NCBI RefSeq assembly: GCF_964275005.1
Contig: NC_092685.1
Location: forward strand, 15,660,579-15,724,578
DNA: 64,000 nucleotides
Direction: 5' to 3'
Origin: Diadema setosum
Taxonomy: Eukaryota; Echinodermata; Echinoidea; Diadematoida; Diadematidae
The first letter of the stretch is position 1; each line of letters begins with the position of its first letter. Below, in pieces: positions 2,303 to 63,626 of this stretch. Made by a program: the position numbers and the translations under genes. The notes beneath the pieces were generated by a model. It was given only the letters and a program-made list of their open reading frames with translations, was not told the origin of the DNA and made no database searches.

Positions 2303-3330
2303 CCTTAAAGATAATATAAAGTTTTGGTATTACCTCAAAAGTTTCCCTGAATTTCCTTGTCTTAGTTTGTGTTTCAGGTTAAAGTACCTTTCATATAAAT
2401 AACACTGTGAGACTTACTCACCCCAAAGTGCTCTCATGTCTTAGTAATCATGCAATAATGGTTTCGTACCAGAGCGCGTACGGCGAGGTAGTACAAGTAT
2501 TGTGCGAATATCACTGCGACCAGCAGCGTGCAGCCCCATACGCATACTGTGTAGCTAACTGCGACCAGCAGCCCCATACGCATAGCTAAATGGGGCTTCG
2601 CATTGTAGCTCACAGGATCATGACAGATGTAGTATCGCGGGTAAATATCAACTTAAAATCCAAAAATTTCTTCAATTTAAAGACTTACCAGTTAAGTTGA
2701 AGTATTGAAAACAGGCTTTGGGCAACGTTTGGTTTTGCCAATAGTCCCTTTCTGTTCGAATTGATGACTGAATGTGACTCGGTCGAGAGGACCTTGGGAG
2801 AGCTACACTGAATTGACGGCCAGCGCATGCGCACACAAACATCTTATCCGTTCATGGATTTGAAATTTTGTTCGCATGTGATGTGTGCGTATGCGCTAGC
2901 CGTAGTAATCAGTGCATGTAGCTCTCCCAAGGTCCTCTCGACAGAGTCACATTCAGTCATCAATTCGAACAGAAAGGGACTATTGGCAGAACCAAACGTT
3001 GCCCAAAGCCTGTTTTCAAGACTTCAACTTAATTGGTAAGTCTTCAAATTGAAGAATTTTGTGGATTTTAAGTTGATGTTTGCCCGCGATACTAAATCTG
3101 TCATGATCCTGGATGCTACAATGCGAAGCCCCATTACGCTATGCGTAATGGGGCTGCTGGTCGCTATGCGTATGGGGCTGCTGGTCGCAGTAAATTGCAC
3201 GATTACTAAGAAATGAGAGCACTTTGGGGCGAGTAAGTCTCACAGTGTTAGTTATATGATAGATACTTTAACCTGAAACACGGAAATTCAGGGAAACTTT
3301 TGAGGTACCAAAACTTTTTATCTTTAAAAT
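2303..3330. repeat. 1-kb foldback palindrome (MITE-like)
   Basis: Two arms of roughly 490-540 bp are near reverse complements. The outer ends are TTAAAGATA (2305) and TATCTTTAA (to about 3327). Inner arm sequences include GAGAGGACCTTGGGAGAGCT (left) and AGCTCTCCCAAGGTCCTCTC (right). The spacer is only about 30 bp, near 2846-2877. Each arm carries repeats of a motif containing CAGCCCCATACGCATA and its complement. There are no transposase-sized ORFs, so this is a non-autonomous element. The short ORFs in it are by-products of the palindrome. Confidence 0.85.
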
Positions 3331-8221: not shown

Positions 8222-18693
<10,472 letters not shown>

Positions 18694-22231: not shown

Positions 22232-22792
22232 TTAAAGGACAAGTCCACCTTTATAAACGTGGATTGAGTGAATGCAGCATTATTTGTCGAAAACATCAGT
22301 GAGAGTTTTAGGAAAATCGGTCAATCTGTTCAAAAGTTATTCATTTTTTAAGTTTCTGCTCAGTCATTGCTGGATGAGAAGACTACTACAGCTTGTGATG
22401 TCACATGTGTACGATATAAAGAAAACAAAGAAAATTAATCATATTTTCACTTTTCTCGCATAATAAAAGAACGCCTGACTTGCCTCTTTCTGAAGGCAGG
22501 GGAAATAATATTACCCTTAAAATATTTCAGTGACAAGTTGAGGAAATGTGCACTCGTTTCAAAAAGTAAAATTTTGTGCATTCTCTTACATTTTCCTGAT
22601 ATTGTTGTATGCATGTGACATCATACACTGTAGTGGCGGTCTTCTCATCCAGCAGTGACTGTGCAGATACTTTAAAAATTCATAACTTTTGAGCAGATTG
22701 TCCAATTTCCCCCAAACTTTCACTGATGTGTTCTACTATCATTGTTGCATTCACTCAATCCACATGTAAATGAAGGTGGACTTATCCTTTAA
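22232..22792. mobile_element. Foldback MITE, TTAAAGGA ends
   Basis: Ends TTAAAGGACAAGTCCACCTT and AAGGTGGACTTATCCTTTAA are reverse complements. Homology continues ~230 bp into both arms (AGCAATGACTGAGC-like and ATGTGACATCATAC-like blocks around 22360-22400 and 22615-22660). It is non-autonomous, with a probable TTAA or TA target. Confidence 0.85.
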
Positions 22793-25827: not shown

Positions 25828-26777
25828 TACAGTGGAACCTTGTTATACAGAGGTCTGATATAACAGGATACATTGTACTGCAGGTCCCAACTCTTAACAG
25901 TTCATTGTTGTACAGGGTAATTCCGTGAAGTTGGGGCACAAAGTGTTACATTTAACCATAACTCAATACTAATTATGCTATACATATATTGTTTATAGGC
26001 TTTACATTTGTATTGAGACCATACATTTTCCTAGAAATTTTGTGCCATTCAGACTCAATTTTGATGAAGTTATTAAAACAATATGTAACGGTATCCTGTA
26101 GCATCATGACGTGTCCATGTAGCATCGTGATAGTTAAAATCTGGTCCTAAAAGACAAATTAATGCAATTAGCTTGACCAAAATTTGATATAATATGCATA
26201 ATTACTAGATTAGTCAGATAGCTAAATATCTTAACTCTCCTTTCCACAGTTTTACTTTTGTACAAGAAAATTACACAATGTGTCACTATGCTACGCGGTG
26301 TCCACCAAATGTAACAAAAAAGGACACGCATAGCATCGTGATACATTTTGTAATTTTCTTAAATTAAAACTGTGTACAGGAAATTTGAGATATTTAGCTA
26401 TCTCATTCACATCTTGTAAATGCATATTGCATCAAATTTTGGTCAAGCTAATTGCCATAATTTGTCTCTCAGGACCAAATTTTAAAACATCACGATGCTA
26501 CATGGACACGTCACGATGCTACAGGACACTGTTACATATTGTTTAATAACTTCATCAAAATTGAGTCTGAATGGCACAAAATTTCCAGGAAAATGTGTGG
26601 CCTCAATGCAAATGTAAAGCCTACAAACAATAAATGTATAGCATAATTAATATTGAGTTATGCTGAAATGTATATTTTAAATATCACGATGCTACATGGA
26701 CACTGCCCCAACTTCATGGAATTACCCTACAGCTGTACCCTGATTAAAGAGAAACCTGATACATGTATAACAAGGTA
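25828..26777. mobile_element. Older MITE split by a foldback element
   Basis: The outer parts TACAGTGGAACCTTGTTATA (25828) and ATGTATAACAAGGT (to 26777) are inverted. They flank the foldback at 25914-26729, so the latter inserted into a pre-existing MITE. Confidence 0.55.
25914..26729. repeat. 816-bp foldback element with repeated GCATCGTGAT motifs
   Basis: The ends are AGGGTAATTCCGTGAAGTTG and CAACTTCATGGAATTACCCT. The arms match for ~370 bp, broken by a short unmatched centre near 26290. The motif CACGATGCTACATGGACAC or its complement occurs at least five times (about 26105, 26120, 26489, 26508, 26683), so the arms carry their own internal repeats. No ORF. Confidence 0.85.
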
Positions 26778-39251: not shown

Positions 39252-42200
39252 TTAGAGACAGTGTCGCTTACTCTCTGGATACTTTGTCTCCAGCTCAGCA
39301 TGAAATTGGAGAAAGAGGTGTCGATTGTCTCTGTTCTCTGTATCTTTCTGCTGATGGAACTCTGTCTTCTCCTTGAAGCCCTTGTGAATGACAAATGCTC
39401 GATCCAAGACCGCAAAGTTGTACCCTGCCACATTTAGCTCACAGACCTGTAACAATAACAGAGAAATTTTACCTTACATGGATGGAGTCATTTCTTTAAT
39501 TTTGAAAAAAAAAAAAAAAAAAACACCACTTGATCAATTGTGACCTGCCACAACAAAAGGGTCCGAAAGTCGTTGAAGGCTAAGCTGAGGTAACTAGAAT
39601 TATCACTGAAGGTGATTAATACCCCCGCCCCTAGTGTTGCTTTGGTAGTATGTGATGTCATGAGGGCAATGACGTTAATACCAAGTTTGTGCACTTGTCG
39701 AATTGGAAACAGAATAATTTTAGTTTACTGTACAATTACAGAGTTGACACTGAGTTCCACAAGGTTTGGGTAAAAAGTGTGGTTACTATGGCAATGCATT
39801 GTCTGATACAAACACAAGGGACATTTTGCATAACTACACTTAAAGGGATAGTGCAGTATTGGTGGAGATGAGAATTGGGCTTCTAACTTTTTGCGAGATA
39901 CCAAGAAAACACTTAAGATACAGTACACAGCATACCATTTTAAGAGGAATTCAAAGTTTATTTGATGAAAATCGGGTTTGGAATGACTGATACTGTACAT
40001 CAAAACACAAAGTAAAACAAAGCGATCGTAATAAAGTGTGGGTCCCACACTTTATTAGATTCGCTCTTTTTTGGATATCTCAGCCATTTCAAAACCAATT
40101 TTCATCAAATAAACCTTGAATTCCTCATAAAATTACATGCTCTTTCATATTTCATAAGAGGTTTCTCATTATCTCACCAAAAAATGTTAGAAACCTGAAA
40201 TTAGGTCTCAACCAAAACTATACATGCCAAATTTGACCTTCATAGCTTGAATGGTTTATTTTGATACAAAAATGAGTGGTTACCATGGCAACACATTTTC
40301 CTTAAACTAACACATTGGTGTCTTGCAAAACTACACTTCTAGATCATGATATATTACTAAATTTGACTTTAATTGCCTGAATGATGGAAAAGTTATCCAA
40401 TCTGCAAGGTTTTGGTAAAATTGTGGTTACCATGGCAACGGTTTGTGTGACAAACACAAAAATTATGTGTTCCACATCTATACCTCAGGGCCATAATGCC
40501 TACCAAATTTGGTTTCAATTGCTTGAAAACTGTGGAAGAAGTTCACTCCACAGGATTTAAAAAAAAATGCAGTTACCATGGCAACGCATTGTCTGATACA
40601 AATAGAAAGGACATTTTGCAAAACTACACTTAAAGAGGATCATACTCACCAAATTTCACCTTCATAGATTAAATGGTTTAATTTGATACAAAAATTAGTG
40701 GTTACCATGGCAACACATATTTCTTATATTAACACATTGGTGTCTTGCATAACTACACCTCCAGATCATCATACATACTAAATTTGACCTTAATTACTTG
40801 AATGATGTTGAAGTTATTCAATCCACAAGGTTTTGGTAAAATTATGGTTACCATGGCAACGCTTTGTCCGACAAACACAAAAATTATGTGTTCCACATCT
40901 ATGCCTCAATGCCATAATGCCTACCAAATTTGATTTCAATTGCTTCAAAACTGTAGAAGTTGTTCACTCCACAAGATTTCGAAGAAAACATGCGGTTACC
41001 ATGGCAATGCTTTGTCAAGTACAAATACAAAGAGTGTCTTGCATAACTACACCTATAGATCATCATAGATACCAATTTTGAAATTGATTGCTTAAATACT
41101 ATGGAAGTTATTCAATCAACAAGGTTTTGGTAAAATTATGGTTACCATGGCAACGCATTGTCCGACAAACACAAAAAACATGTCTTGCACATCTATACCT
41201 CAATAGCATCATTTACCCTAAGTTTCATTTAAATTGCTTCAAAACTGTAGAAGGAGTTCACGACGCAAGATTTTGCAACAGACCGACCGACAACCCGACC
41301 GACCGCCCGACCAACATCATGGTGATTCCTATATACCCCCTTCACACTACGTGTGGCGGGGGTATAAAGTTTGAAGTCAGATCATCAAAATTAGTCAAAA
41401 CCATAATGTTTTGTCTTATCATCTGCCAAAATCTTGAAACTAAATGACCAAAGGAAAGGCAAGAAATCAGTATTTTTCTGGGCCATGATTTTCTGACTTT
41501 CAATGGAAGAGTAATGTGTGCGAAGATTTGGATTTAGCGCTGCAGATAGACTCCGCCCTTAGCAACGAGCGAGTGTTCTTATTGGTCAGTGCGTGGCATC
41601 CTGGTTACTGATTGTTTGAACGCAGACCGCTGGTGCTAAGCTTGAATGAACATCGCAGAGGTTGCTGAGAGCATATCTTCTATTGTCCGGAGGTGAAAAA
41701 TGTCTTACCTCCCCTTGATCATGATTGCGTCGGAAGGAAAACTTTGAAGGTAGTTTTCTCGAAAATGCTGATTTAATAGACCACTCAACATAATCTCATA
41801 AAATTGTTGATATCTCTGCAACCAAGTACTTTAATGTGTCATGTGAAATTAAAGCATAAGAGTAAGGGAATAATGTCATGCCATTTTTAGAAAATTGACC
41901 TCCCCTGACTTTCGGATCCTTTAGTTGAAGCGGGTCACAATTTCTCTTTACATCTCATAAACTGAAGTGACTTCTGAAAATGCTTCCTGTACCTACACTG
42001 GTAGTGGATGTTACAGAAGCACTTTATAACTTTCACATATACAGTAACAAAGCAATCTCAACAATAATCTATGATTAATGGAAGGGCTGCAGTCGTTAAT
42101 CTAATGTTTTGGGGAAAAGAAACTTTGATGGCAATTTGTGCAAAATGTAACACATACTTGTGATAATATACTTCCTGAGGAGAATCTTGGTAACAACTTT

Positions 42201-44238
42201 GAAGTAGAAAAGCAAATCTTTGTTTTTGCACTTTTATAGGATTGTCACTAACCACTACATACTGATGTACGGCGGAAGGGAAACTAACAGACTGTCTTTA
42301 CACAGGCTAGCCCCATCAATGCACAATGGCTAGGATTATCACCTGACTGATTCTGTTGTAGCCATACTGTCTGAAGCGTTCATCATAGAGAGGAACATCA
42401 CTCCGGCTGATGTAGAAAGGTTCCCATAGGGGTTTCCATTCCACTGTGTAAGCCACACCAAGCTGTCCAGTGAAGCTCTACGGGGTAAGGAATGGGGGAT
42501 ATAATACATTGAAATGTTGGCCATGTACAGCTGTTAATATTGTATATTGCCTGCAATAAAATCACTATCACCTGCTGTGGTTTCCATGCTCATTTCATTC
42601 TCTTTTCAGTAATTTTGAAATAACATTGTGCAAGAATTGACATGAAATCATCAGTAATATCACAAATACAGAGGTGAATTATTAAACCAGGGATGACTAC
42701 ATGGCATAATAAAATCAATTTAATTTTTCTAAAATATCAAAATGACTGATTATTCAAACTTATTCTTAAACAACTGAATCAAAATAAAACATCACACATC
42801 TTTCATATTTGAAAATGACGACTGCATACACATTACAGACAGGTAGAATTCATAAGTTATTGATGACTGATGTAAACATATTTGCCTAGATGGGTAATTG
42901 GGGGAACTTCTTTTTAGCTTCCAGCAGGCATGGGGGATCTTGGTTCTGAGAATAGTTGTATGTGATGCATCATCTTAAAATACACATATTTTTTCACTAA
43001 TTCAACTAAGTTGTTTGCATTTGCTGCAATATTCTATATTCAACTTTCTCCCCAAGGGTAGTTCACCTTAAGCAAATCAAATACTGGTATAATACTTTAT
43101 AGTTTATATGTAATGTATGCATAAAGATTTCTTGTTTTTAGAACAGCACTTCTTGCAAATGATCAAAATGTTTCATTCATCAAATTGGAACATGGGAATG
43201 ATAGATGGATTTGGACAGAAATGGTACAGTCTGAATTTACAAATTGTTACTCACTTGAAGACTTGTCCAACGCAAATAATCTGTATGGTTCTGACAGTAG
43301 GGACACTGCTTCACATAGAATTGTCTGACTGTGTCCTTTCCAAACTCCACCATCAGTTCTCTCTTGTTGCAAGGCAACCTGTGAACTGCTCTGACGTCAA
43401 CCTCAAATGCTGGCAGCACAAACACCATCTGCTGCACCATGTCCTGATCCAGCCAGAGTGAGGATGACCCCTGGACAAACTGAAGGAAGTTCTCTCGGAG
43501 ACCACAGCTTGGAAGCATGTCGACATCCAACACAAAGTGATAATCGGTGAGGGCATGCGTCCTGCCCACATTTCTTAGTAAGTTCGTTGGATACGAAACC
43601 CCGTTCTGTGCATAATTTCTCACATTCTCACTCGAAGACTTGATGCTGTCGATGAGTTTATCACATTGAACCATGGGTACTGAAATGGAGCGCTTATTTG
43701 TCTTTGCACCATATACTTCAGCTTCTTTTGAAAAGGAGCTCAGAGGGTGCACGAGGTGGAAAGTCACATTTCTACGAATTCCTAAATAGCACTCTTGGAG
43801 TGAAAAGATATAGCTGACTATTGAGGGTATGTCAGGAAGGCTGCCAAAAACAGCTACTGACACTGGGCCTTTCCATCTTTCAACTAATTCTGGCAGGTGA
43901 AGCATGTTATTCATAGAGCAGTGAGTAATTAATGTTACATCTCTCCTGTTCAGAGGCCTGACTTTACTATAAACTCTGGATAGGTCGTAGAAAATCTGAT
44001 ATGAGCCATAGGTGTTAAGTTTTGGTGCTGGCAAGTTGATGTATCTGTGCTTGGTCCTGTATTGATGACTGTGGCTGCTGTTTGCACTCTTCTTTGGAGC
44101 AAACTCTCTTGCCCCACTCTGAAGCCCATTTTGAGTTCTGTTGTCCAGCCATGAGATCATTGTGAGATGAATGAGTTGGAGGAAGACCAGTATTATCACC
44201 AGAGCACAGATGGTGTACTGCATCAGTGTGCAACGCAT
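39252..44238 (-). CDS. B4GAT1: Beta-1,4-glucuronyltransferase 1-like enzyme, complete 3-exon gene
   Basis: Exons in order: 44238-43255 (328 codons), 42477-42343 (45 codons), 39446-39252 (64 codons plus stop). All are phase 0, giving 437 aa (human 415). The N-terminus has a short cytosolic head and one membrane anchor (YTICALVIILVFLQLIHLTM), as in a type II Golgi protein. The lumenal domain has VTLITHCSMNNML, ERWKGPVSVAVFG, YPTNLLRNVGR, the catalytic LDVDMLPSCGL (DVD, the DXD metal site), EPFYISRSDVPLYDERFRQY and FVIHKGFKEKTEFH. This set is diagnostic of the B4GAT1/LARGE C-terminal GT49 fold. In vertebrates B4GAT1 adds the GlcA primer for matriglycan on alpha-dystroglycan. A paralogous GT49 enzyme cannot be excluded. 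A splice acceptor after 44293 (complement) implies an upstream non-coding exon. Intron 2 is ~2.9 kb and holds the X-box array element. Confidence 0.93.
39594..41370 (-). mobile_element. Hairpin-capped array element with X-box-bearing 146-bp units
   Basis: Read on the minus strand it starts near 41370 with a terminal hairpin (TATACCCCCGCCACA...GGGGGTATA). A GGTC/GGTCG tetranucleotide run follows (41279-41313), then eight tandem units. It ends with GGCGGGGGTA, a hairpin ATCAC-CTTCA-GTGAT (39602-39616 complement) and CTAG (39594-39597). GTTACCATGGCAAC occurs at 40279, 40426, 40572, 40701, 40847 and 41141. One-mismatch forms are at 40995 and (weaker) 39782. Spacing is mostly 146-148 bp. It has the same plan as the elements at 14.6, 60.7 and 62.3 kb, but a different sequence. 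No protein coding is evident. It lies sense-oriented in intron 2 of B4GAT1. Confidence 0.8.
39845..40206. mobile_element. Foldback MITE inserted in the X-box array
   Basis: ATAGTGCAGTATTGGTGGAG at the left is inverted as CTCAACCAAAACTAT at the right. The arms pair for ~170 bp around a perfect central palindrome, TAAAGTGTGGGTCCCACACTTTA (23 nt, 40033-40055), and the arms continue beyond it. Removing ~350 bp restores the 146-bp spacing of the array units, which supports the boundaries. Confidence 0.8.
41371..42342. other. B4GAT1 intron 2, remainder
   Basis: Non-coding, with a slightly more CpG-rich patch around 41550-41680 (GACTCCGCCCTTAGCAACG). It may be an old repeat, but I recognise no element. 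Confidence 0.4.
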
Positions 44239-44293
44239 GTTGACTGTAACTGTAGTACTTCAGAATCATCATTTTTCAGAGAAACGAGCCAAT
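44239..44293 (-). promoter_or_regulatory. B4GAT1 5' leader with overlapping upstream ATGs
   Basis: The leader after a pyrimidine-rich CTTTTTTCCAG acceptor contains a tandem ATGATG (starting at 44272 complement). It opens an 85-codon frame that overlaps the B4GAT1 start in another frame. If retained in the mRNA it would be a translation-dampening uORF. Confidence 0.4.
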
Positions 44294-59300: not shown

Positions 59301-62300
59301 TCACATTGTTTGTCTCCCACAGGTTGAGTTCTACATACAGCAGAGTGATGCAGATAACCATGCAGTGAGGGAAGCAGCATGTGCCTGCATAGCAGAGTTG
59401 GGGTCAAAGGTCAGATATGTAGATTACTGTAAAACATGAAATCTTCGCGACATGAAATTTATGCAAATTGGAGCCGAAGGCCTTCTGTGCAGTATGAAAT
59501 TTTGACACATTGCCACTAGCATTTAATGCATATAGTGTAGACAAGAACTTTTGAGGACAATTTAATTTTGTGAAACTTGGCTCTCATGAAAGTAAAATGC
59601 ATTTGAAAATTTCTAGTTTTCACAGTACTTGTAGTTACAGACAGACATTAAATTGTCATCATTATTGTTTGGAAGGGGAAGAGGGTATATACATGTTTGC
59701 ATTTGAGATCATTCACTGCACATGTAGTACTCTTGACAAATGTTATGGCACTTCAGAGTAAATGGATGTTCAAAAGAGGATCAGCTTGTGTACCATATAT
59801 TGCTCTCTCTCAGAAACAGCATCACTTTCTTTTTTAATACTTACTGTGTTTATTTATGATTTCAGTACACCACTCACTGAAAAAGTAACAAACCATTGCC
59901 CAGATATTTCATTTATTTTGTAACTGCATAGTAATTTTCTTCTTTGAGTACATGTTCAATCTGTTTTTTACCACACTGCTGCATTTACCGTGACTTGTGT
60001 ATTGCAAGCATTTTTCATCATCTTAGATTGACACCTGACTTGTGCATTGCAAACTTTCTTCGTGTTCCAGATTGACAAAGATGCCGTTCGTAGTCATGTG
60101 CAACGTTTACTGGAGGCACTCCTGGTGTGTTTCAAAGATGACAGCTGGCCAGTGAGAGATGCTGCCTGTGTTGCTTGTGGCAACTTTGTCAGGTGCTTCC
60201 CAGAAGAATCAAGGTCAGCACTCATTAAATGAAGCCTTTCTTCAGATTCCTTCCCCATCCCCATCTCCAAAATATCCAATTTCAAGTATTGGTCTTTCTT
60301 GATATTCCTCCCATTGCAAAGAATGTATGAACTCTAATTGATCTATAAGAATTATGCAGCACAATATCGAAATGCTGGACCAATTCGAGGATGATATGAC
60401 ATAACTTTTCACATATCAATTTCTTCCTGCCGTCTGAATTATGGATGGAAATACTTTGAAGTAGTGTTTTGAAACAGGTTTCTAAAGATCTTGCATTGAA
60501 AGCAGTGTCATGTTATGTAAACATGATTGATGATGCAGGCATTGCATAGGTTCACAAAGAGAGTATACTAGTACTCTGCTATTTTTGGATCTGTATAACA
60601 ATGAGTGGAATAAGTTTCAAAAGTATAACATGTGATCTGTGTCATTTTCTCAGAGAAAAAAGATAGCATGAACTGATCTCTGATAGTTGTTTTTATGCCT
60701 CCGCCAACGAAGTGGCCGGAGGCATTATGTTTTCGGGTCGTCCGTCCGTCCGTCCGTCCGTCCGTCCGTCCGTACGTACGTCCGTACATCCGTCCCGTTT
60801 TGTTTTTGTCGATATCTCAAGAACCGTGAGGTGGTTTTGCATCAAACTTGGTATGAGGGTATATCCTGGGGGGATAATACTTTGTTTGGATTTTAGGGTC
60901 ACGGGGTCAAAGGTCAAAGGTCACAGGTCAAGGTCAACTCCTCAAAATATCACTGCTTTCCTTATATTTATGCAATGCCCGAAGGATTTTTTTTTTAACT
61001 TGATGTATGCATGTATAACCCAATATATATTCTGTGGGAAGTTTCTTGCCAAAAGGTCAAAGGTCAAAAGGGCAAAGGTCAAGTGAAAGTGCTAAATTGC
61101 ACTTCTTCCTCCATATCTTAAAAGTAACTCAAGGTATTATCATGAAACTTACATATTTATTCATGTTCTACCTAACAGTGATTCTCTTTGGAACTGTGAG
61201 GTCAAAGGTCAAAGGCCAGGTTTAGATAATATTATTTTACCATTTGATACTGAAATTATACTTTTTCTCAATACCTTGAAAATTACTCAATGCATAAACT
61301 TATAAAAGGGTCAAAAGTCAAGTAAAAATCATCAGTTCCCCCAAATACCTGCACTCTGACGTTTTAATCATTCATCCAATTAAACCTAGTTCTAGGAGTG
61401 TGTACATTCAGCACATTTGTGGCAAACCTGTCATTTTAATATTTTGCCAATTGTGTGAAACTTTCATCACACATTGTCAAGACATTGTACTATAGACCTA
61501 TTAGGAGAACCATGCATTATGGCGGAGGCATACACCAGTCGCCATAGCGACATTTCTAGTTTGAATTATGCAACTGAGCTCAAAACTTATCTGTATCTTG
61601 TTTCTTTCTTGAAATAGTCTTACATGCATCCTCTTCAGAAACATTTACGTGCCATTATGCACCTTTAAGTTGAAATTTTGGTTTGAATGCCTGCAGTAGT
61701 GAAATAGAACAGATACCTTGATTTAAAAACATATGTAAGATATAGTGAAAGTGTTTGATCTATTTTGATGGGAGGTTTTCAGTGAGTTTAAGTATTGATT
61801 ATACCTTCACTTTGCTTCCTGTTTGTAAAGACAAAGTATGCCTGACCTGTACCCACTCTTCTTTGAGAACCTCCAAGACAACATTCCATCTGTCAGACAA
61901 GGCGCTGCTGCAGCCCTGGCTAATGTAGTCAGAGCTTATGGTAAGTGTGCATGATTAAAAAATGTATGAGGTAGACAATATAGAGATCACTTTTTGTTTT
62001 GTTTTTTGCTGTGAAAAATACCATTTGTTGCTTATCCTTTGCTGACTAAAAAACTTGGGAGAAGATGCGTTAATTTTATTAGTTTGGGTTATTTAGCAGT
62101 TCTAGAAAGAGTACATTCTTGATGTAATTGCAAACTATTTGTATGACTTTGCAGTTTTGTTGCATGTAATATAACAAAAGTGAGCAGAGATCATAGCATA
62201 ACAAAACAGGTGGTCTCATTTAGCCATTGCACAGAATAGTACCTGTGTGTATTTTTATGCCCCCACCACAAAGTGGTGCCGGAGGCATTATATTTTCGGG

Positions 62301-63626
62301 TTGTCTGTCCGTCCGTAATGAATTTTGTGGACAGCGTAACTAAAAAACCTTTTGAGGTATCCTAATGAAACTTGGCATGTATGTATTAGAGGGTGAAGTT
62401 GTGCCTATCAACTTTTGGGTGCACATGCTCAAGGTCAAAGGTCAAAAGGTCAAGGTCAAATAAATAAAATTTCACTATTTCTGCCATATCTATGCAATGC
62501 CGGAAGATATTTTCTTGAAACTTAGTGTATACATGTATTACCCAATTGAGATTCTGTGGTGAAAGTTTGGGGTAATGAGGTCAAAGGTCAAAAGGTCAAG
62601 TAAAAAATAGTAAAACTTCACTTTTTTCTGCGTACCTTGGAAATTGTGCAAGGTATCTTCATGGAACATAGTATATATACATGTACTGACTGGTAGTGAT
62701 TATCTAGACAATTTAGGGTTCCTGGGGTCAAAGGTCAGGGGTCAAAGGTCAAGGGCAACACTTCAAAATTTTACTATTTCCCTCATGTTTATGCAATGCC
62801 AGCAGGATTATTTTTTTTTATACTTGGTGTATGCATGTATAACCCAATAGAGATTCTCTGGAAACTTTTTTTTTTTTTTTTTTTTTTGCCTCAAAGGTCA
62901 AAAGGTCAAAGATCAAGTGAAAGTGCTGAACTTACTTTTTCCTCCATATCTCAGAAGTGGTTCAAGTTATCTTGAAACTTACTACATATTTATGCATGTT
63001 CTGCCTGACAGTGATTATCTTATGAATTTTAGGGTCACAGGCCAGATGAAAATGGTAACAATGTACTATTCAATACAGAAATTGCACTTTTTCTCCATAC
63101 CTTGAAAATTTCTCATTGCATAGATGTATGAATGGGTCAAAGTCAAGTTAAAGTCCTTAAATCCCCAAATACATGCTTTCCTATTCATCCAAGTAAACCT
63201 CGGTCAAGGAAGGTGAACATTCAACACATTTGTGACAAACTTGTCATTTTAATATTTTGCCAATATTGTGAAAATGTAATCACACATTGTCCACATATAA
63301 CATCTAGACCTATTAGGAGAATCATGCATTATGACGGAGGCATATTAGTCGCCATAGCGACATTTCTAGTCTATTGTGATTTGATACATGTATATTCAAT
63401 ATCTTTAATTCTTTTTCTATGTGTATGGTTTTGTTTGTGTGTCTGTCTTGTTGAAGGTGATGAAGCATCAGAATTCCTAATGACCAAGATTTCAGAAGGT
63501 ATCAAAGGATTGGAAAACCAACCGGCCAGCTCAGAGAGATACAGTGGTTTGGATAAGGGTCCAGCTACCTATGGTGTTGTCAAACAGCTCAGAGACAATG
63601 ACATGGAGCTTCATTCCAATCAGCAG
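50352..63626 (+). CDS. HEAT-repeat protein, 11 exons, C-terminus beyond window
   Basis: Exons: 50352-50658, 53546-53724, 54906-54976, 55802-55965, 57305-57420, 58011-58120, 58778-58880, 59323-59409, 60071-60213, 61831-61940, 63457-63626. Every junction is GT-AG and in phase, giving 520 codons so far. The start is MELKCVLELLLSAKKLERDK. The protein is helical throughout, with repeated HEAT/ARM signatures such as KHGALMGAKVL, DKEARVRLAAG, NRFVRETGFYVC, DNHAVREAACACIAELGSK, DDSWPVRDAACVACGNFVR and DNIPSVRQGAAAALANVVRA. Such solenoids act as protein-binding scaffolds. I see no enzyme motif, signal peptide or membrane segment. Exon 11 (from GDEASEFLMTKISEG) turns hydrophilic. I cannot assign it to a named family, so function is open. 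Introns hold several MITEs, a LINE fragment and two hairpin-capped elements. Confidence 0.9.
51255..51590 (-). repeat. Dispersed hairpin-ended repeat, copy 2 (inverted)
   Basis: The reverse complement matches 44953-45280: ATACGAGAGTGAAAGCCATT, GATGAGGAGTGAAGCAG, GATATTCATGAAGGAAAC and a terminal hairpin built from GCAGCCGCTGTCGCG. It lies in intron 1 of the HEAT gene. Confidence 0.75.
51591..52499. other. HEAT-gene intron 1, unassigned
   Basis: No gene. The phrase CAGTGTCTGGTCAGGCT (51975) recurs as GGCGTCTGGTCAGGCT (52239), a sign of a decayed duplicated element. Confidence 0.35.
52500..53110 (-). mobile_element. Decayed LINE ORF2 C-terminal fragment
   Basis: Minus-strand frames read TFQQWKRITTAAVLGHREGK, then VKCQLLCGVYPTN and, in mixed frames, RCPCQYKDETIDH with HLLGECMLYTKEK. 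This matches the late region of many LINE proteins (k..LLTGtY.l....C..C....ET.eH.L.eCp.y). Several stops and shifts separate the blocks. It is antisense in HEAT-gene intron 1. Confidence 0.5.
54531..54714. mobile_element. MITE, TACTGTAAAACCAGAAA family, copy 2
   Basis: Shares TTGACATTGGCATTCAATGC, TGTAGACAAGAAC, AAATCTTGGCTC and TTTCTGGCTTTACA with copies at 23768-23957 and 59425-59628. Confidence 0.65.
56040..56105 (+). mobile_element. 5' terminal hairpin of another capped repeat (fragment)
   Basis: TTTTAGCTCACCTAAGCAGA through AAAGTGAGCTATTACAATCG folds (TAGCTCAC...GTGAGCTA) like the 5' ends of the hairpin-capped elements. The rest is missing or unrecognisable. Confidence 0.45.
56256..56468. 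mobile_element. MITE, TACTGTAAAAGTGGA ends
   Basis: TACTGTAAAAGTGGATATTT is inverted as AAATTTCCACTTTTACAGTA, with several TTCGCG motifs inside. TA flanks. It lies in HEAT-gene intron 4. Confidence 0.9.
56767..57090. mobile_element. MITE, AGGGAGCTTTAGATT family, copy 2
   Basis: AGGGAGCTTTAGATTTTTGC faces GCAAATCTAAAGCTCCCT. Relative to copy 1 at 44430-44744 the internal asymmetric block (AATCTAAAGCTACTTTTC) is inverted. Confidence 0.85.
58980..59110 (+). mobile_element. Fragment of a CCTCCGCCAAGG-type capped repeat
   Basis: TTTTTACCTCCGCCAAGGGA, TTATGTTTTCG, a (GTTT)n/(GTTA)n run and CAAAATAACTCAAAAAGTAG follow the same order as the 5' part of element A (hairpin, tetranucleotide run, first unit). 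Only this part remains. Confidence 0.55.
59425..59628. mobile_element. MITE, TACTGTAAAAC family, copy 3
   Basis: TACTGTAAAACATGAAATC faces AAATTTCTAGTTTTCACAGTA. It shares internal phrases with the copies at 23768 and 54531 and begins 16 bp after a HEAT-gene exon (exon 8). Confidence 0.75.
60690..61559 (+). mobile_element. Hairpin-capped repeat element, copy B
   Basis: Near-identical to copy A (14559-15584) over most of its length. It has the same 5' hairpin, a cleaner (CCGT)n run (60740-60775), internal units and a 3' end with hairpin GTCGCCATAGCGAC (61538-61551) before CTAG (61556-61559). It lacks ~155 bp found in A, with both break points in GGTCA repeats. It lies in intron 9 of the HEAT gene. 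Confidence 0.85.
62252..63369 (+). mobile_element. Hairpin-capped repeat element, copy C (diverged)
   Basis: Same plan as A and B with more substitutions: 5' ATTTTTATGCCCCCACCACA, GTCCGTCCGT, units with GGTCAAAGGTCA clusters, and a 3' hairpin GTCGCCATAGCGAC (63348-63361) before CTAG (63366-63369). It fills most of HEAT-gene intron 10. Confidence 0.8.

What the first reader, a model, noticed from the sequence alone, without database searches (positions are those of the whole stretch)
39594..41370. Transposable element that is an array of 146-bp units, each with an RFX-type X-box palindrome
GTTACCATGGCAAC occurs at 40279, 40426, 40572, 40701, 40847 and 41141, with a one-base variant at 40995 and a weaker one at 39782. 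Gaps are 147, 146, 129, 146, 148 and 146 bp. After removing a ~350-bp foldback insertion, the 39782-40279 gap also fits. The palindrome matches the known RFX site consensus (GTNRCC-N-RGYAAC), and the spacing is close to the DNA length in a nucleosome core. Such an element could seed phased, high-affinity RFX sites (cilia-gene regulators) wherever it lands, here inside B4GAT1. The motif could instead be kept by the element's own replication or transposition.
Basis: partly seen in the sequence, partly recalled or inferred. Interest (0 to 1): 0.72.

Follow-up and report, generated by a model that had tools for sequence, protein, structure and literature searches.

The report
Jumping gene carrying RFX-site arrays
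A non-autonomous rolling-circle jumping gene in an animal genome carries rows of what look like binding sites for RFX, a regulator of cilia genes; the sites stayed fixed while the element evolved but decay freely once a copy has landed, which suggests that the transposon itself uses them.

Summary
Window 39593-41368 (minus strand) is a HINE, a non-autonomous Helentron, in the last intron of a B4GAT1-like gene. It carries eight ~128-148-bp units, each with an RFX-type X-box.

In the host genome (912.7 Mb) GTTACCATGGCAAC occurs exactly 9,238 times, against 1 for the reversed pattern. Two sister forms add 2,076 and 692. Carriers include HINE arrays of ~146- and ~160-bp units and long-inverted-arm elements with no recognisable HINE end.

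Key test: eight arrays were fetched through the element's end sequence, without using the box. After insertion the box decays like its surroundings (4.7% vs 5.2%, p=0.82). Between old unit types it differs at 0-1 of 14 positions while the rest differs by 19-46%. So the box was kept in the transposing lineage and is not protected by the host afterwards.

Best reading: the elements exploit host RFX, as Caenorhabditis Helitrons appear to exploit HSF-1. RFX binding is inferred, not shown. A role in array formation, or recognition by the element's own protein, remains possible. Nucleosome phasing is not supported.

Novelty: new variant of a known kind (transposon spreading transcription-factor sites).

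The parts
39593..41368 (-). Whole HINE (non-autonomous Helentron); 5' end at 41368, 3' end at 39593/39594
   Evidence: Sequence and ends; genomic copies with the same ends
41355..41365 (-). 5' subterminal inverted repeat ATACCCCCGCC
   Evidence: Pairs with 39619-39629
41332..41340 (-). IR complementary to the 5' subTIR (stem with 41355-41365)
   Evidence: Inverted repeat I3; fold -14.4 kcal/mol, 9 of 200 shuffles fold as well
41281..41312 (-). Imperfect GTCG/GTCGG microsatellite
   Evidence: Read from the sequence; not listed by Tandem Repeats Finder
39756..41275 (-). Array of eight units (three types), one of them split by an insert
41141..41154 (-). X-box, exact
40995..41008 (-). X-box, one mismatch
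40847..40860 (-). X-box, exact
40701..40714 (-). X-box, exact
40572..40585 (-). X-box, exact (unit of 129 bp)
40426..40439 (-). X-box, exact
40279..40292 (-). X-box, exact
39782..39795 (-). X-box, two mismatches (unit next to the 3' end)
39851..40219 (.). Foldback insertion inside the last unit (limits approximate)
   Evidence: Inverted arms 39888-39990/40080-40182; limits by alignment to the sister unit; a copy lies at L115
39619..39629 (-). 3' subterminal inverted repeat
39602..39616 (-). 3' palindrome ATCAC-CTTCA-GTGAT
   Evidence: the 5-bp stem is weak (23 of 200 shuffles fold as well), but it is the same in genomic copies
39593..39597 (-). Terminal CTAG(T)
39252..39450 (-). Last exon of the B4GAT1-like host gene (limits approximate)
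   Evidence: Glyco_transf_49 profile positions 271-329
43237..44259 (-). Upstream reading frame of the same gene; a middle exon lies near 42300-42470
   Evidence: Glyco_transf_49 positions 1-224; middle exon located by motif

Best explanation
The feature is a non-autonomous Helentron (HINE) whose central satellite-like array repeats an RFX X-box in every unit. Shown: HINE anatomy; thousands of X-boxes genome-wide; the box unchanged between diverged unit types and between two HINE families; no extra protection of the box after insertion (small sample); the same box in long-inverted-arm elements. Inferred: the box is selected because it helps the element spread, and it does so by binding the host's RFX protein. 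The array would recruit RFX, opening chromatin or driving transcription in cells where transposition pays (RFX-active ciliated or germ-line cells), while each insertion scatters strong but soon decaying RFX sites around the genome.
For: HINE parts present and repeated in genomic copies. Box steps 3 over 14 columns vs 124 over 103 in the window array; the lowest window not overlapping the box has 8 steps. In arrays found without the box, unit types differ by 0-1 of 14 in the box and 19-46% elsewhere, while copies of one type differ by 20/423 in the box and 189/3627 elsewhere. Consensus units of F146 and F160 agree at 80 of 132 aligned positions outside the boxes and at 28 of 28 inside. 9,238 + 2,076 + 692 exact boxes of three RFX-consensus forms, reversed controls 1, 0 and 4. 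Fit to the RFX1 consensus. The box also sits in long-inverted-arm elements without a HINE end, with at most weak similarity to HINE units beyond the box. It is an imperfect palindrome (positions 4 and 11 do not pair) in the window's exact copies, which favours protein recognition over a hairpin. Precedent: Helitrons carry most HSF-1 sites of C. elegans (passages of PMC6927752).
Against: No binding, expression or chromatin data. The search for the RFX domain PF02257 did not complete. Changes at the two positions RFX tolerates (R4, Y11) are frequent in F3 (20 of 49) and L094 (19 of 35, most being that array's own consensus letter), but 0 of 26 in F146 and 0 of 2 in F160; cells are not independent events and boxes there were picked at up to 3 mismatches. 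Array edges fall at the box in 8 of 12 F146 loci, which a junction signal would also explain. The box-independent sample is 8 of 40 scored hits.
Confidence: 0.55

Rival explanations
1. The palindrome is a signal for the element's own machinery: a recognition site of the Helentron Rep/helicase or endonuclease, or a junction where tandem units are duplicated or exchanged. The fit to RFX is incidental.
For: The microsatellite stands where the next box would be in 8 of 12 F146 loci, and both edges of the window array lie within ~26 bp of a box place. DTC84 of Donax has a conserved palindrome near its repeat junction (passage of PMC5139131). Element-level constraint fits this equally well.
Against: The box is also in long-inverted-arm elements without a HINE end. 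It matches a known host factor's site over its whole length and is not a perfect palindrome in F146 and F160. PMC5139131 found no statistical link between conserved motifs and junctions in BIV160/Cg170.
Confidence: 0.25
2. The copies serve the host: X-box arrays were co-opted as RFX enhancers of nearby genes, and the host keeps them.
For: Strong consensus sites in thousands of places; the window copy lies in a gene; Helitron-borne sites do drive genes in C. elegans. In box-picked loci the box looked better kept within a type (21/910 vs 719/8543).
Against: In arrays found without the box there is no such difference (20/423 vs 189/3627, ratio 0.91, p=0.82), so the earlier figure is best read as selection of the sample. 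F160 copies: 2/504 vs 52/5337, too few to tell. Single co-opted copies are not excluded.
Confidence: 0.08
3. Neutral relic: the box is only an old shared piece, kept alike by chance, recent homogenisation or the way copies were sampled.
For: Loci picked through exact boxes do overstate conservation. Only one genome and a few unit types were compared.
Against: In the box-independent sample the unit types still share the box while differing by 19-46% elsewhere. In the window array 10 of 100,000 column shuffles reach the observed conservation. Homogenising 14 bp but not its flanks is hard to explain by conversion. Some carriers share little beyond the box.
Confidence: 0.07

Closest known systems
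Cg_HINE elements of Crassostrea gigas (PMC7492417; outline, passages, section 7 and part 1 of section 10 seen)
   Same: subTIR, IR, GTCY-type microsatellite, central units mostly of 140-180 bp, 3' subTIR and palindrome, families sharing ends but not units
   Different: No RFX site is mentioned in what I saw (0 occurrences of 'transcription factor' in the main text); unit sequences are in figures that I could not see
DTC84 (Donax trunculus) and Pearl elements (oysters), as described in PMC5139131 and PMC7492417 (passages and sections)
   Same: Short arrays of satellite-like units inside Helitron-class elements; DTC84 has a conserved palindrome near the repeat junction
HSE-bearing Helitrons of Caenorhabditis (PMC6927752, passages)
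   Same: Helitrons carry many sites of one host factor; the authors speculate that the element first used it selfishly
   Different: HSF-1 sites instead of RFX sites, with binding shown; the HINE anatomy was not compared here
DINE-1-like elements with MSL sites in Drosophila miranda (mentioned in PMC4067079; the original paper PMC4086361 is not held)
   Same: HINE-type element supplying host protein-binding sites
   Different: Sites for the dosage-compensation complex; taken up for host use

Membership tests
HINE (non-autonomous Helentron) | 5' subTIR close to the end, with complementary IR | tested here: met
   41355-41365 and 41332-41340, subTIR ~3 nt from the end; strict pattern found in 7 of 12 F146 loci
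HINE (non-autonomous Helentron) | 3' subTIR followed by a palindrome near the 3' end | tested here: met
   39619-39629 and 39602-39616; strict 3' pattern in 6 of 12 F146 loci. The subTIR is ~26 nt from the end here, 38-60 in the mite HINEs
HINE (non-autonomous Helentron) | microsatellite and central tandem repeats | tested here: met
   GTCG-type stretch 41281-41312 and array 39756-41275
HINE (non-autonomous Helentron) | no coding capacity | tested here: met
   Three of the longest stop-to-stop frames in the element (119, 108 and 89 aa) have no Pfam match over a cut-off
HINE (non-autonomous Helentron) | insertion between T and T without target-site duplication | tested here: inconclusive
   Ends read TTTATACC... 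and ...CTAGTT, but no empty site was available
HINE (non-autonomous Helentron) | autonomous Helentron partner in the genome | tested here: inconclusive
   Helitron_like_N: 49 matches, 21 in open frames over 3,000 aa; a 3' end 34/35 identical stands ~6.7 kb from one of them, but may belong to a neighbouring HINE
RFX X-box | match to GTNRCC-N0-3-RGYAAC | tested here: met
   Six of eight boxes match in full; consensus quoted in PMC3414849
RFX X-box | bound by RFX protein | not testable with these tools
   Needs ChIP/CUT&RUN or a binding assay; the search for the RFX domain PF02257 did not complete

The most novel reading that the evidence does not exclude
Several transposon classes of one animal (HINEs with two unit lengths, the L094 foldback arrays, long-inverted-arm elements) have each taken up the RFX X-box and keep it by selection for transposition. 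RFX would then license transposition in this genome, and transposons would account for much of its roughly 12,000 consensus X-boxes of the three counted forms, which the host must tolerate, silence or use.
Probability: 0.3. Interest if true: 0.87.

Novelty: new variant of a known kind. Interest (0 to 1): 0.72.

Why it matters
Transposons that spread transcription-factor sites are known (HSF-1 sites in Caenorhabditis Helitrons, MSL sites in Drosophila). My searches showed no listing about RFX sites in Helentrons; they cover one open-licence library and most papers were seen as listings only. Here selection on the element and selection on the host can be told apart by sequence alone: the motif is fixed between old unit types and drifts after insertion. 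If RFX binding is confirmed, it links the cilia regulator to transposon activity, offers a reason why some satellite-like units carry a conserved palindrome, and gives thousands of insertions with which to ask how a cell copes with a flood of consensus decoy sites.

Tried and rejected
Nucleosome phasing: rejected as the reason for the spacing, because a sister family runs at about 159-164 bp and 126-129-bp gaps recur.

Host-level conservation: it first seemed supported in loci picked through the box (21/910 vs 719/8543; 0.60 mismatches per box after dropping one exact box per locus). I rejected it for the bulk of copies after the box-independent sample gave no difference. A first whole-array alignment of those eight arrays gave box 67/425 vs rest 434/4182; I judged it out of register (arrays of different unit numbers) and replaced it by type-wise alignment.

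AGGTCA-bearing HINEs as a parallel case: half-sites are not clearly better kept than the rest between copies (0.970 vs 0.936, 0.747 vs 0.724, 0.812 vs 0.722), and the best-kept windows between units are no better at the motif than elsewhere.

Viral and bacterial collections: paired boxes gave 0 places. The left-flank 16-mer gave 4 viral and 35 bacterial or archaeal loci; 1 of 39 had a possible partner repeat downstream and none had two boxes in the orientation scanned, so I read them as chance. The AGGTCA-HINE end gave none.

Not answered: single-mismatch count of the box and the RFX domain search.

Full report
OBSERVATION. One search gives 15 strand-wise matches at up to 2 mismatches in the window, against 0.57 on average and 3 at most in 100 shuffles. 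Spacings are as reported. The outermost unit is split by a ~369-bp foldback insert; without it the gap is ~127-129 bp, equal to the 129-bp unit at 40572. The seven full units come in three types (same-type pairs 81-88% alike except one at 74%, other pairs 51-68%), so the array is a higher-order repeat.

WHAT IT IS. Read on the minus strand, the element has the parts of a HINE as described in PMC4067079 (passages) and PMC7492417 (outline, passages, section 7, part 1 of section 10): 5' subTIR with complementary IR, GTCG-type microsatellite, central units, 3' subTIR, 3' palindrome, CTAG(T). The hairpins alone are modest: 9 of 200 shuffles fold as well as the 5' end and 23 of 200 as well as the 3' end. 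A blind scan for hairpin + CTAGT + perfect 11-bp subTIR finds two places in the window, this element and one AGGTCA-bearing HINE, but 6 of 100 shuffles also give two or more. The genomic copies below are the stronger evidence. The element lies in the last intron of a B4GAT1-like gene, on the same strand.

GENOME. The window is C1:15660579-15724578 of a 912,680,840-base genome, species unnamed. GTTACCATGGCAAC: 4,729 + 4,509 exact, reversed control 1 + 0. GTTGCCATGGCAAC: 2,076, control 0. GTTACCATGGTAAC: 692, control 4. The 100 places listed (first 8.7 Mb of C1) are covered by 29 loci; 20 of 29 hold a chain of four or more box-like sites (up to 3 mismatches) at 115-215-bp spacing, the other 9 fewer. 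Two unit lengths stand out, ~146 (with 126-129) and about 159-164.

FAMILIES. F146 is the window copy and 11 of the 29 loci; in 10 of these 11 the right flank matches the window's over 136-169 nt at 93-99% identity. F160 has 10 loci, left flank 80-86% like the window's and, in 8 of 10, a different 3' hairpin GTCGC-TGTA-GCGAC. Strict patterns find the 5' hairpin in 7 of 12 F146 and 10 of 11 F160-list loci, and the 3' end in 6 of 12 and 10 of 11 (the F160 list there included L073, later put in F3). F160 is young: nine four-unit copies differ pairwise by 1.8% on average (0.7-3.4%) outside the boxes. Consensus units of F146 and F160 agree at 80 of 132 aligned positions outside the boxes and at 28 of 28 inside. 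A third set, F3 (L073, L086, L089, L090, L093, L095, L096; up to 16 boxes), is related to F146 by profile. L094 carries boxes in both arms of a foldback; its units show no blastn match to F146 units at E 0.01, only weak profile matches to F3 (E 1.3e-6) that may come from the box. Another carrier is a long-inverted-arm element (8 of the 10 loci, and L084) with GTTACCATGGTAAC in both arms; most of these loci were chosen because two boxes were listed close together. No HINE 3' end was found in it with the pattern used, and its similarity to F146/F160 units is 18-22 nt at the box or one weak 55-nt match. Five of the 20 GTTGCCATGGCAAC loci share another single-box repeat; several other loci are single sites of unknown nature.

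IS THE BOX SPECIAL? In the window array 13 of 14 box columns are invariant against 48 of 132 others, and 10 of 100,000 column shuffles have any 14-column window as conserved. Parsimony: 3 steps over 14 columns vs 124 over 103; the lowest windows all overlap the box and the lowest that does not has 8 steps. In box-picked loci the box window ranks second, first, first and first in the four sets, but those boxes were chosen at up to 3 mismatches. For a fair test I used the right flank, which has no box: 746 first-look candidates, 40 scored, all 98-100% identical over at least 162 of 170 nt. Eight arrays were fetched, the first eight of the list not already held, and box places were set by a profile of the unit interior without the box. 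33 places: 13 exact, 13 with one, 3 with two and 4 with four or more mismatches, some of the last being edges or inserts. Against their own unit type, boxes differ at 20/423 positions and the rest at 189/3627 (ratio 0.91, p=0.82); one place fell in a small cluster and was left out. Between types, the box differs at 0 of 14 (1 of 14 where one type is involved) and the rest at 19-46%. So the box stayed fixed while unit types diverged inside the active lineage, and drifts in inserted copies.

MECHANISM. This is the pattern that selection on the transposon itself leaves. RFX binding is favoured by (i) the full match to the RFX1 consensus; (ii) changes at the tolerated positions R4/Y11 being common in F3 (20 of 49) and L094 (19 of 35), though 0 of 26 in F146 and 0 of 2 in F160; (iii) presence in elements that are not recognisable HINEs; (iv) the Caenorhabditis precedent, where HSF-1 binds sites in Helitrons and the authors speculate on selfish use (passages of PMC6927752). 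For rival roles: the microsatellite stands where the next box would be in 8 of 12 F146 loci, and DTC84 of Donax has a conserved palindrome near its repeat junction (passage of PMC5139131). That RFX acts in ciliated and male germ cells is general knowledge, with titles and abstracts to that effect in the listing; the proposed setting is inference.

AUTONOMOUS PARTNER. Helitron_like_N has 49 matches in the genome, 21 in open frames over 3,000 aa. About 6.7 kb downstream of the match at C1:167206 stands a 3' end identical to this element's at 34 of 35 positions, with a two-mismatch box and a copy of the same foldback insert upstream of it. Whether this end belongs to the autonomous element or to a neighbouring HINE is open, because the stretch between could not be fetched.

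OTHER HINES IN THE WINDOW. Three copies at about 14557-15585, 60691-61560 and 62252-63370 have the same end plan and clusters of AGGTCA half-sites 67-170 bp apart (15, 12 and 16 exact GGTCA; 14.1 per kb vs 1.5 outside, both strands). These half-sites are not clearly better kept than their surroundings, which makes the X-box result more specific.

LIMITS. One genome, species unnamed; no functional data; the box-independent sample is 8 of 40 scored hits and leans to close matches; host RFX was not searched successfully.

Noticed in passing
window ~14557-15585, ~60691-61560, ~62252-63370: Three related HINEs with clusters of AGGTCA half-sites (DR1-like, a nuclear-receptor type of site by recall) at roughly 100-170-bp spacing, with 3' ends like those of the F160 X-box HINEs.
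   Followed up: partly
window 2305-3327, 22232-22792, 25947-26672: Large near-palindromic (foldback) stretches, 72-86% self-complementary.
   Followed up: no
L084, L099-L106; L103 and L104 with ~1.3-kb arms at 97% and 95%: Long-inverted-arm elements with X-boxes in both arms, two of them with nearly identical arms and so probably young.
   Followed up: partly
G000, 49 places: Many Helitron_like_N domains in open frames of 3,276-3,517 aa (21 of 49), so autonomous Helentrons may still be active.
   Followed up: partly
F146 and F160 unit consensus: Besides the box, short blocks such as AAATTTGGTA and TGCAAGACAC are shared by the two diverged unit families.
   Followed up: no
L067, L073: Units of the 160-bp type combined with a 3' end of the ATCAC...GTGAT type: HINE modules seem to be exchanged between families.
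   Followed up: no
window 15710-15892: A (ATT)61 microsatellite right beside an AGGTCA-bearing HINE.
   Followed up: no
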